Origin: Rhodococcus qingshengii JCM 15477
GTDB taxonomy: Bacteria > Actinomycetota > Actinomycetes > Mycobacteriales > Mycobacteriaceae
Assembly (NCBI RefSeq): GCF_023221595.1
Contig: NZ_CP096563.1
Coordinates: 1,470,501 to 1,534,500, forward strand
DNA length: 64,000 nt
Direction: 5' to 3'
Part shown: piece by piece, positions 1,731 through 3,803 of the stretch
Position numbering within the stretch: the stretch's first letter is position 1
How the letters are laid out: every line of letters begins with the position of its first letter
Notes under the pieces: model-generated
Database searches by the model: none
Told to the model about the DNA's origin: nothing
Seen by the model: the letters and a program-made list of their open reading frames with translations, nothing else
Made by a program: the position numbers and the translations under genes

Positions 1731-2192
1731 TCAGTTCTGCGTGAAGACGTCGTAGGAGGCGTTCATCGTGGGGTAGCCGGTGGCCATGTAGTCGGTGAGG
1801 ATGACGTGCGTCGGGTCGCCGATGATGCGAGTCCCGTCGAGGGTGGGGTTGCCGACGTAGTTGTTGGCAGCCATGACCGTCTGGACGCCGTCGGCGACGT
1901 TGTAGGTGACGTCGACACCGATACCGCGGGGATCGCTGCTGTAGGCGGTGACGATCTCGGTGGTGTGCGGGGCCAGGTAGGAGCGCGGGCCGTTGATCCA
2001 CTGTCCGTAGGGGTTGGACGCGCTGTCCAGCAGCATCGGGTTGTCGGTGTTGTTGGTGATGGTCATGGCAACCGTCGGGCCGTCGGTGGGCATGGTGCCG
2101 GCGTTGGCGATCGCTGCGGTTCCCAGTGCGGTTCCGCCGACAGCGAGGGCGATTGCGGTGACTGCTACGAAGCGAGTGGTGTTGGTACGCAT
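1731..2192 (-). CDS. Small secreted protein, paralog A of a pair flanking a response regulator
   Basis: The 153-aa protein starts at the ATG at 2192, chosen because AGGAG lies 8 bases upstream; the open frame runs further back but lacks a ribosome site. Residues 1-31 form a clear Sec signal peptide (RTNTTRF, hydrophobic VAVTAIALAVGG, cleavage-like ANA-G). The mature part has no recognised domain. It shares with the protein at 3036-3479 the motif D-ASNP-G-W (DSASNPYGQW against VDASNPNGDW), a YLAP/YILP segment, a V-V/L-TY strand and a C-terminal GYP-MN--Y motif, so the two are paralogs. Two operator-like repeats at 2270-2325 lie upstream. The function is unknown; an exported beta-rich protein is likely. 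Confidence 0.8.
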   Translation of the reverse strand: MRTNTTRFVAVTAIALAVGGTALGTAAIANAGTMPTDGPTVAMTITNNTDNPMLLDSASNPYGQWINGPRSYLAPHTTEIVTAYSSDPRGIGVDVTYNVADGVQTVMAANNYVGNPTLDGTRIIGDPTHVILTDYMATGYPTMNASYDVFTQN

Positions 2193-2269
2193 GATGTCTG
2201 CTCCTGGGATGGTGTGTGGTTGCCGTTCTCGGCGATGAATCAATCTTGTCGCGAATGAGTGCTGCAGTA

Positions 2270-2289
2270 TGTCCGCCGACGGGGCCGTG
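2270..2289. promoter_or_regulatory. Operator-like site O1 upstream of paralog A
   Basis: The sequence TGTCCGCCGACGGGGCCGTG matches 16 of 20 positions of the site at 3558-3577 upstream of paralog B. It lies 77 bp upstream of the paralog A start and exactly 36 bp (start to start) from the palindromic O2 site. The intervening DNA is not conserved, which makes the shared sites stand out. Confidence 0.6.
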
Positions 2290-2305
2290 GCGGGGTTGAA
2301 TCTCT

Positions 2306-2325
2306 TGTCCCCCGATCGGGGGAGA
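2306..2325. promoter_or_regulatory. Palindromic operator-like site O2 between paralog A and the NarL-type regulator
   Basis: It contains the perfect 16-bp palindrome TCCCCCGATCGGGGGA (2308-2323), preceded by TG. The same element, TGTCCCCCGATCGGTGGACA, recurs at 3594-3613 upstream of paralog B. It is about 43 bp from the ATG of the response-regulator gene, so it could serve both divergent promoters. Confidence 0.65.
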
Positions 2326-2368
2326 CGTAAGTGCTCGCATTGCTGGTACGGGCGTGAGAAAGTGAGCA

Positions 2369-3028
2369 ATGCGCGAAGGCACGAAGCCGCTGGCCGGCAA
2401 GGTTTCCGTGGTGGTCGGCGACGATCACCCACTGTTCCGTGAGGGCGTGGTTCGGGCTCTGACCGGCAGTGACAGCATCGACGTCCTGGGCGAGGCCGAC
2501 GACGGCGCAGCAGCGCTCGCAATGATCCGCGAACTACGCCCGCAGGTCGCGCTGCTCGACTTCCGGATGCCGCACCTGGATGGAACTCAGGTCGCCGCCG
2601 CAGTCGTTCGAGACGAGCTTCCGACGCGTGTGCTTCTGCTCAGCGCTCACGACGAATCGTCTGTCGTGTACCAGGCCCTGCAAGCCGGTGCTGCCGGATT
2701 CCTGCCGAAGGAATCCACTCGCGCCGAGATCGTGAGTGCCGTGCTCGACTGTGCTGCGGGACGAGATGTGTTGCCGCCCAGTATCGCCGCCGGATTGGTA
2801 GGAGAGGTTCGGCGTCGTAGTGAACCGTCCGGTCCGACGCTCAGCGCGCGCGAACGCGAGGTTCTCGGATTGATCGCGCAGGGCGCCAGCATCCCGGCCA
2901 TTGCCTCACAACTCTTTCTTGCGCCCTCCACCGTCAAAACCCACGTGCAGCGCCTCTACGAGAAACTCGGAGTCAACGATCGAGGCGCCGCCGTCGCCGC
3001 TGCAATGCGGCAGGGATTGTTGGAGTGA
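2369..3028 (+). CDS. NarL/FixJ (LuxR-type HTH) response regulator, orphan
   Basis: The 219-aa protein has an N-terminal receiver domain (residues 10-125) with the acidic pair DD near residue 18, phosphoacceptor Asp64 in ALLDFRMP, a switch Ser in LLLSAHD and Lys in FLPKES. A C-terminal LuxR-type helix-turn-helix (about residues 153-215, TLSAREREVLGLIAQG...STVKTHVQRLYEKLG) follows. No histidine kinase gene lies nearby, so its phosphodonor is encoded elsewhere. It is divergent from the secreted paralog A and 7 bp upstream of the convergent end of paralog B. Both paralogs have matching operator-like sites, so they are its likely targets (inference). Confidence 0.9.
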   Translation: MREGTKPLAGKVSVVVGDDHPLFREGVVRALTGSDSIDVLGEADDGAAALAMIRELRPQVALLDFRMPHLDGTQVAAAVVRDELPTRVLLLSAHDESSVVYQALQAGAAGFLPKESTRAEIVSAVLDCAAGRDVLPPSIAAGLVGEVRRRSEPSGPTLSAREREVLGLIAQGASIPAIASQLFLAPSTVKTHVQRLYEKLGVNDRGAAVAAAMRQGLLE

Positions 3029-3035
3029 GCAAGCG

Positions 3036-3479
3036 TCACCGAAGCACGTACGTGACGTTCATGGCCGGGTAACCCGAGGTCATCGTCACCGTGACGTCGT
3101 GGCTGTCGGGGGCGTACGTACCTCCGGCATCCGCCCTGGTCTTCGAGTTGGTAGCACTGAAGACAAACACCCCACCGTCGTCGGAGCGGTACGTGAGCAC
3201 GATGGGGAAGTCGTTCTGGTTCTTGCTCGTGGCCACAACGTTCACGTTCATGTTGGGGAGGATGTAGTCCGCCGGCGGGACGACCCAGTCGCCGTTCGGG
3301 TTGGATGCGTCGACCAGATACAGGGCCCCGCGACCCGAATTGCTGATCATCGCCGTCGTGACGGATGTGTCGGTCATCGACTTCACCGTGTTCGCACCGG
3401 CGGAGCGGGCAACCAGAGCTGCCATGCTGAGGCCGGAGAAGGAAAGTGCTTCAGGTCGAATTGTGTTGGTGCTCATCAT
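3036..3479 (-). CDS. Small probable exported protein, paralog B of the pair
   Basis: The protein is about 147 aa. GAGGAG lies just upstream of two consecutive ATG codons: 3479 leaves a 3-base spacer and 3476 a 6-base spacer, so 3476 may be the true start. It aligns with the secreted protein at 1731-2192 over the motifs VDASNPNGDW, YILP, a TY strand and SGYPAMNVTY near the C-terminus. The N-terminal hydrophobic stretch (FSGLSMAALVARSAGA) is weaker than in paralog A but could be a signal sequence. It has no recognised domain. Its 3' end converges on the response-regulator gene with a 7-bp gap. Matching operator-like sites lie upstream at 3558-3613. Confidence 0.75.
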   Translation of the reverse strand: MMSTNTIRPEALSFSGLSMAALVARSAGANTVKSMTDTSVTTAMISNSGRGALYLVDASNPNGDWVVPPADYILPNMNVNVVATSKNQNDFPIVLTYRSDDGGVFVFSATNSKTRADAGGTYAPDSHDVTVTMTSGYPAMNVTYVLR

Positions 3480-3557
3480 GTTCTCCTCGATTTGTCGGTC
3501 TCGGTGACCGAGTGTTTCTGTGATGAGACAACTATGGCCCCGAAATCCCTTCGGGTC

Positions 3558-3577
3558 TGTCCACCTACGGGTCCGAG
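3558..3577. promoter_or_regulatory. Operator-like site O1 upstream of paralog B
   Basis: TGTCCACCTACGGGTCCGAG corresponds to the O1 site at 2270-2289. It lies 78 bp from the paralog B start at 3479, against 77 bp for paralog A. Confidence 0.6.
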
Positions 3578-3593
3578 TGCTGGACGACATCGC

Positions 3594-3613
3594 TGTCCCC
3601 CGATCGGTGGACA
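3594..3613. promoter_or_regulatory. Palindromic operator-like site O2 upstream of paralog B
   Basis: TGTCCCCCGATCGGTGGACA is palindromic except at one position per half. It shares its first 14 bases with the site at 2306 and is again exactly 36 bp from O1. Confidence 0.65.
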
Positions 3614-3620
3614 CAGCGCT

Positions 3621-3754
3621 CTCCGCCCACCCAGTGTCATGGGGTGGAGGCTTCGCCCACCCAGTGTCATGGGGTGGAGGCTTCGCCCACCCAGCGTCAT
3701 GGGGTGGAGGCTCCGCCCACCCAGCGTCATGGGGTGGAGGCTCCGCCCACCCAG
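3621..3754. repeat. Four tandem copies of a 30-bp repeat plus partial flanks
   Basis: Units at 3631, 3661, 3691 and 3721 read CCAGYGTCATGGGGTGGAGG followed by CTYCGCCCAC. Units 1 and 2 are identical, and units 3 and 4 are identical with two changes. Partial copies flank the array. Each unit contains CCACCCA...TGGGGTGG arms that can pair. The unit length is a multiple of three and has no stops, which creates artificial long open frames on both strands. The array fills the gap (3480-3803, 324 bp) between the operator sites and the monooxygenase gene. Confidence 0.9.
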
Positions 3755-3803
3755 CGGGAGAACCTGTTCCTCTACCATTCAACCCACTCGTAGCGTGGCC
3801 ACC

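What the first reader, a model, noticed from the sequence alone, without database searches (positions are those of the whole stretch)
1731..3613. Two paralogous small exported-type proteins flank an orphan NarL regulator and share a duplicated two-site operator
Paralogs A (1731-2192) and B (3036-3479) share DASNP-G-W and GYP-MN--Y motifs. Upstream of each lie O1 (TGTCC-CC-ACGGG-CCG-G) and O2 (TGTCCCCCGATCGG-GGA), exactly 36 bp apart and 77-78 bp from the start codon (3479 for paralog B), although the DNA in between is not conserved. O2 of paralog A is a perfect 16-bp palindrome also near the regulator's own start. This looks like a compact response-regulator-controlled secreted-protein system that I do not recognise from the literature.
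Basis: partly seen in the sequence, partly recalled or inferred. Interest (0 to 1): 0.82.

Follow-up and report, generated by a model that had tools for sequence, protein, structure and literature searches.

The report
NarL-type regulon of aegerolysin-fold proteins
In a soil bacterium of the Rhodococcus group, a DNA-binding switch protein appears to turn on a small family of proteins with a membrane-binding fold through a pair of DNA sites kept at an exact spacing across many related bacteria, and in this lineage the switch has lost its own sensor, whose place in the genome is now held by one of its targets.

The parts
1731..2192 (-). Paralog A, 153 aa: signal-peptide-like N-terminus (about residues 1-31) plus aegerolysin-fold domain
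2241..2248 (-). -10-like element of A (CAAGATTG)
   Evidence: fixed distance from O1 in the promoter model; promoter function inferred
2270..2289 (-). O1 of A (degenerate palindrome, CACGGCCCCGTCGGCGGACA), at the expected -35 region
2306..2325 (.). O2 of A (palindrome; ends 43 bp before R's start codon, divergent intergenic region)
2369..3028 (+). R, NarL/FixJ response regulator, 219 aa, orthologue of mycobacterial NarL; orphan in this genome
   Evidence: Pfam Response_reg and GerE; 101 of 143 identical to PDB 3eul; dedicated kinase of relatives not found in the genome
3036..3479 (-). Paralog B, 147 aa, aegerolysin-fold domain, probably without a working signal peptide; sits where 12 genus genomes have the kinase
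3529..3536 (-). -10-like element of B (CATAGTTG)
   Evidence: promoter function inferred
3558..3577 (-). O1 of B (CTCGGACCCGTAGGTGGACA)
3594..3613 (.). O2 of B (TGTCCACCGATCGGGGGACA), 0 mismatches to the consensus

Best explanation
R is a NarL-type activator. As a dimer, presumably phosphorylated, it binds the near-perfect palindrome O2 and, 36 bp downstream, the weaker palindrome O1, which takes the place of the -35 element, and recruits RNA polymerase to the CATAGT-type -10 (class II layout; O1 centred near -44 and O2 near -80 if transcription starts about 7 bp after the -10). Its targets here are three paralogs with the aegerolysin/Cry34 beta-sandwich: A and C exported, B probably cytosolic. 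In most relatives looked at, R is followed by a multi-span HisKA_3 kinase without an obvious extracellular domain, so the likely input is a membrane or cell-envelope condition and the likely output exported, membrane-binding-type protein. In the R. erythropolis group that kinase is gone and B stands in its place, so R must be driven by another kinase, by a small phosphodonor, or by its own amount. Shown by computation: operator layout, co-occurrence, orthology, kinase absence, fold prediction. Inferred: binding, activation, signal, lipid binding.
For: Three O2 sites with at most 1 mismatch in 7.5 Mb, all upstream of the three paralogs. The same 20 of 28 genus genomes hold R (E<=1e-70) and an A-family gene; O2 (<=1 mismatch) is in these 20 and one 74% complete genome; reversed-pattern controls are 0 in all 28. 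In 251 family genomes O2 occurs in 41 of 51 with R >=300 bits and in 17 of 200 others (Fisher 4.7e-24); outside the genus 22 of 32 against 17 of 195 (6.7e-13); the bit cut was set by me after seeing the list, and related genomes are not independent. O1 half-site at +36 in 35 of 237 windows, 16 hits in all over the 59 other offsets. The stretch APSTVKTHVQRLY[ED]KLGV in the HTH is the same in 34 of 39 orthologues aligned; the 5 from g9 and g7 (Gordonia type) differ in part, as does their O1; the 6 paralogs shown differ more. O2-like sites (1-3 mismatches) lie just upstream of R in 9 of 14 loci from other genera. Genus g26 has A-family genes in 12 genomes but no R above 151 bits, and the 4 of 12 upstream regions scored lack the promoter. 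Kinase directly after R in 12 of 20 genus genomes, absent in the 8 that carry B. Asp64 and Ser92 kept in 39 of 39 orthologues. Folds.
Against: No binding or expression data. 10 of 51 genomes with R at >=300 bits lack an O2 with at most 1 mismatch; 14 of 251 have such an O2 with no R at E<=1e-65 (one of the 14, G062, has R just below that cut, one, G156, has none above 142 bits, the rest were not looked at further). In three genomes (G015, G021, G023) A lacks O1/O2 although R and B's sites remain. B lacks a convincing signal peptide, and an aldehyde dehydrogenase and a small BRCT-like ORF carry the same promoter in other Rhodococcus, so 'exported' does not describe the whole regulon. A-family genes exist without R (14 of 66 genomes). 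The kinase is also not found next to R in two genomes without B (G070; G105), so its loss is not tied to B alone. A review says mycobacterial NarL activates nitrate genes (passage of PMC8139620). The aegerolysin fold rests on prediction, and no member matches a Pfam aegerolysin model.
Confidence: 0.72

Rival explanations
1. O1/O2 are bound by a different regulator that merely co-occurs with R, and R's adjacency to A is incidental.
For: 17 of 200 genomes below the R >=300-bit cut still have an O2; no binding data; genomes of this group carry further NarL-type paralogs.
Against: Same 20 of 28 genomes for R and A-family; O2-like sites just upstream of R in 9 of 14 loci from other genera; HTH stretch identical in 34 of 39 orthologues; no promoter in 4 of 4 g26 loci scored, a genus without R; palindrome symmetry as expected of a NarL-type dimer (general knowledge).
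Confidence: 0.13
2. R represses rather than activates: O1 covers the -35 region and bound R blocks the promoters until a signal releases it.
For: O1 overlaps the expected -35 position; direction cannot be read from sequence.
Against: By eye no good independent -35; the -10 letters keep a fixed distance from O1 (first A and second-last T of the element in 95% of 42 promoters), and O2-O1 spacing is 36 in 82 of 89 promoters, which fits contact with polymerase.
Confidence: 0.13
3. The A-family proteins are weapons: one half of a binary pore-forming system against predators or competitors, like Cry34/Cry35 or AfIP-1A/1B, rather than proteins acting on the cell's own envelope.
For: Closest solved fold is Cry34Ab1, then actinoporins, ostreolysin and RahU.
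Against: By eye no large partner gene beside A, B or C; B lacks a signal peptide; in mycobacteria the same promoter stands before other small exported, often His-rich proteins; RahU is listed without a partner in a review (passages of PMC9505663). The genome was not searched for partner families.
Confidence: 0.25

Closest known systems
Mycobacterial NarL (PDB 3eul) response regulator
   Same: 71% identity over 143 receiver residues; the R orthologue of a genome that is probably a Mycobacterium (G105) matches it nearly throughout (288 bits over 144 residues); same domain layout
   Different: Named for nitrate control, and a review passage says it activates the nar operon and aids DevR at narK2 (PMC8139620); no nitrate gene was seen among the first ORFs behind this promoter
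DevR/DosR-type promoters of mycobacteria (recalled, not tested)
   Same: NarL-family activator, paired palindromes near -35
   Different: Other operator sequence, fixed 36-bp spacing, other targets
Aegerolysins: Cry34Ab1 (Gpp34) and RahU
   Different: 15 and 13% identity to Cry34Ab1; no Pfam aegerolysin match in 51 members; A and C have signal-peptide-like starts; no partner gene seen nearby
Actinoporins (FraC, sticholysin)
   Different: No helix in the models and little room for an N-terminal pore helix before strand 1 if the signal peptide is cut where expected

Membership tests
NarL/FixJ response regulators | Receiver plus LuxR-type (GerE) HTH | tested here: met
   PF00072 84.6 bits and PF00196 61 bits, both above cut-off
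NarL/FixJ response regulators | Acidic pair, phosphoacceptor Asp and switch Ser/Thr | tested here: met
   D18/D19, D64, S92; D64 and S92 in 39 of 39 orthologues aligned, the acidic pair in 38 with one not covered by the alignment
NarL/FixJ response regulators | Dedicated kinase partner | tested here: not met
   Not found in this genome: best hit 34% identity, at another place; present after R in 12 of 20 genus genomes. Orphan members are known (general knowledge), so this does not exclude membership
Orthologue of mycobacterial NarL | High identity and a clear gap to paralogs | tested here: met
   Receiver 101 of 143 identical; orthologues 50-100%, paralogs at most 47%; an orthologue matches 3eul nearly throughout. 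No reciprocal search of the M. tuberculosis genome
Orthologue of mycobacterial NarL | Control of nitrate metabolism | not testable with these tools
   Needs expression data
Aegerolysin family | Aegerolysin beta-sandwich fold | tested here: met
   Predicted models only:
Aegerolysin family | Match to the Pfam aegerolysin profile | tested here: not met
   None of 51 members at E<=0.01; the only matches were WS_DGAT_C (2 members) and FHBP_N (1 member), both weak. So 'aegerolysin-fold', not filed as a member
Aegerolysin family | Binding of specific membrane lipids | not testable with these tools
   Needs liposome assays
Binary pore-forming systems (Cry34/35, PlyA/B) | Large partner protein encoded nearby | tested here: inconclusive
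   By eye no partner-like ORF beside A, B or C; neighbours were not scanned and the genome was not searched for MACPF or Toxin_10
Actinoporins | N-terminal amphipathic helix before the sandwich | tested here: inconclusive
   No helix in either model, but residues 1-31 (A) and 1-34 (B) are low confidence

The most novel reading that the evidence does not exclude
A sensor swap: in the R. erythropolis group a leaderless, cytosolic copy of the regulator's own target (B) took the kinase's place in the genome and now supplies the regulator's input, for example by sensing membrane lipid and controlling R directly, turning a two-component system into a short feedback loop. A milder and likelier form: mycobacterial-type NarL is, over the whole family, mainly a regulator of small exported proteins through this operator rather than a nitrate regulator.
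Probability: 0.05. Interest if true: 0.88.

Novelty: new variant of a known kind. Interest (0 to 1): 0.68.

Why it matters
It gives a testable operator for the NarL orthologue of this bacterial family; a full-text search for five forms of the operator letters found no paper in the held library, and the listings on that regulator, seen as titles and abstracts only, showed none either. It adds an aegerolysin-fold family in Rhodococcus, Gordonia and relatives that Pfam does not name, places it under a defined promoter, and offers a natural experiment: loss of a dedicated kinase, its position taken by a target paralog, while the phospho-site stays conserved.

Tried and rejected
O2 as a general genomic signal: rejected, 0-5 sites per genus genome and none in 7 of 28. 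O2 at C5:340162 (2 mismatches): no O1 in either direction, treated as chance. Export of B: not supported. Kinase merely missed: the genus-wide search gave 505 bits or more in 12 genomes and at most 152 bits in the 8. Anti-phage defence: PADLOC gave no match for A, B or the BRCT-like ORF, and only weak HTH overlaps for R. Pfam and NCBIfam: nothing above cut-off for A or B. PDB by sequence: no match with a profile of 15 members. Thaumatin-like and lectin folds score lower.

Limits. Loci behind the counts were partly fetched because they hold the palindrome or an A-family gene. So 49 of 66 with signal-peptide-like starts is descriptive; it uses a crude test and start choice, has no background control, and leaves out 3 of 69 promoters without an ORF; several low-scoring rows there look like chance. 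In one search the printed value for C without O2 used a wrong index and is not used; C's full score is 60.3. A-family loci scored by the model: g9 9 of 10 at 11.9-42.6 (the tenth, L320, is cut by a contig end, -31.1); g7 14.6 and 26.2; G028 9 of 11 at 7.4-32.1 (L349 cut by a contig end, -41.4; L353 -10.3); g14 64.1, 3.4 and -12.8; g11 -20.7 and -25.5, with a site shifted by one base; g26 4 of 12 examined, -38 to -48. Named organisms for G handles rest on equal contig lengths (against 32); that g28 is Mycobacterium is inferred from its NarL and peptide sequences.

Full report
What is there. The window opens with an intact divergent pair, A (1731-2192, minus) and the response regulator R (2369-3028, plus), and a third gene B (3036-3479, minus) whose end lies 7 bp after R's. 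A and B are paralogs (31% identity; score 151 against at most 59 in 500 shuffles). Between close relatives dN/dS is well below 1 for A, B and R in the comparisons made (three genomes for all three genes, a fourth for A and R). Upstream of A and of B lie O2, then 16 bp, then O1, then 21 bp, then a -10-like CAAGAT or CATAGT.

A third copy. The own genome holds one more paralog, C, 48% identical to A and 3.4 Mb away on the same contig. It has the same promoter (60.3 bits with a model trained on mycobacterial promoters only). In 7.5 Mb, three places match TGTCCNCCGATCGGNGGACA with at most one mismatch: those of A, B and C. Of 13 places with up to three mismatches the next best (2 mismatches) has no O1; the nine with 3 mismatches were not examined.

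Co-occurrence. In 28 genus genomes an A-family gene was found in 20, R (E<=1e-70) in 20 and O2 (<=1 mismatch) in 21. The first two sets are identical and the third adds only a 74% complete genome. In 251 genomes of the family, 41 of 51 with R at >=300 bits have O2, against 17 of 200 others (Fisher 4.7e-24). Without the own genus it is 22 of 32 against 17 of 195. Genomes are related, so these are not independent events, and the bit cut was chosen on the list. Of 66 genomes with an A-family gene, 52 have an R orthologue at >=200 bits. Of the 14 without, 12 are one genus (g26); the 4 of those 12 whose A-family upstream was scored have no such promoter (-38 to -48 bits).

The promoter grammar. In these, 120 sites gave 237 oriented windows. 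The O1 half-site GGACANAC (<=1 mismatch) stands at +36 in 35 and at 0-3 for each of the other 59 offsets tested, 16 in all. Of 89 distinct composite promoters found when spacings of 35-37 were allowed, 82 have 36 bp; many are from related genomes. A model of 42 less redundant promoters carries 72 bits, including a TTCAtCC core in the spacer and the -10. Trained on 16 mycobacterial promoters alone, it places A and B first and second in the window; with O2 left out, no position scores above A and one above B, of 127,832. Among A-family promoters that the larger model was not trained on, 9 of 10 g9 (Gordonia) loci score 11.9-42.6, both g7 loci 14.6 and 26.2, and 9 of 11 G028 loci 7.4-32.1, against -27 or less for unrelated window positions. 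Exceptions are told under Tried and rejected.

The regulator. R has canonical receiver and GerE domains; Asp64 and Ser92 are kept in all 39 orthologues aligned. Its best solved relative is mycobacterial NarL (3eul, 101 of 143 identical). The orthologue of G105, probably a Mycobacterium, matches that chain nearly throughout, so I take R as the NarL orthologue; the locus name Rv0844c is recalled. Orthologues (50-100%) are well separated from paralogs (at most 47%). The DNA-recognition stretch is the same in 34 of the 39; the five from g9 and g7 differ in part, and their O1 differs too.

The lost kinase. Outside the genus, at least 12 of the 14 R loci looked at have a ~400-residue kinase directly after R, 7 of them confirmed by alignment. 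One such kinase has HisKA_3 and HATPase_c and several membrane spans by hydropathy. In the genus this kinase (505-545 bits) follows R in 12 of the 20 R-bearing genomes. The other 8 have only a 34-36% relative elsewhere, of a kind also present in 8 of the 12. Exactly these 8 carry B. Upstream neighbours of A and R, several kb away, are shared with the kinase-bearing genomes. So R here is an orphan by loss, and B sits where the kinase was. Against a tight link of B and kinase loss: the kinase is also not beside R in G070 (L237) and G105, which have no B. In three of the 8, A has lost O1/O2 (53 bp between A and R against 176 here) while B keeps them.

Other targets elsewhere. The same promoter stands before an aldehyde dehydrogenase and a small BRCT-like ORF in other Rhodococcus (BRCT-like is my reading; Pfam gave nothing above cut-off), a solute-binding protein in Antrihabitans, a CDP-diacylglycerol-pyrophosphatase-type protein in Mycolicibacterium, and 70-90-residue exported, often His-rich peptides in mycobacteria. 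By a crude test, 49 of 66 first ORFs look exported.

Reading. The most economical account is a NarL-type activator with a class II, two-palindrome promoter whose outputs are mainly exported, envelope-facing proteins, in this lineage an aegerolysin-fold set, with the kinase lost. Literature: three papers were seen as passages only. PMC8139620 says mycobacterial NarL activates nitrate genes with a kinase, NarS, unlike NarX; this speaks against a purely envelope role. PMC9505663 reviews aegerolysins. PMC6080646 reports NarL-family regulators rising in the cold in a Rhodococcus, not specifically this one. Searches for the operator letters and for aegerolysin with Rhodococcus returned no paper. The primary paper on mycobacterial NarL and DevR was not held.

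Noticed in passing
window 3621-3756: Array of 4.5 nearly perfect 30-bp tandem repeats just upstream of O2 of B, between B's promoter and the next gene, a flavin-monooxygenase-like ORF (gene name by eye); a relative (L044) shows similar units at the same place.
   Followed up: no
G028 (loci L348-L358) and G057: A genus (g2) with 13 and 10 A-family matches per genome; 9 of 11 G028 loci examined score above 0 with the two-site promoter model.
   Followed up: partly
L152, L165, L172, L177, L194, L196, L304: Mycobacterial 70-90-residue exported-type peptides ending in HHHHQ-like histidine runs, under the same two-site promoter.
   Followed up: partly
L090, L092, L099, L102, L104: Small ORF resembling a single BRCT domain (my reading) behind an O2 site in several Rhodococcus; no Pfam match above cut-off for the two scanned.
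   Followed up: partly
L236, L242, L244, L245, L247: In mycobacterium-type genomes the gene divergent from the R orthologue, in A's slot, is a different small exported-type protein with a similar leader and the same promoter.
   Followed up: no
L021-L023 and L040-L042 (G015, G021, G023): Natural loss of O1/O2 from the A-R intergenic region, 53 bp against 176 bp here, while B keeps its sites.
   Followed up: partly
L237 (G070) and L399 (G105): R orthologues without the kinase next to them in genomes that have no B.
   Followed up: no
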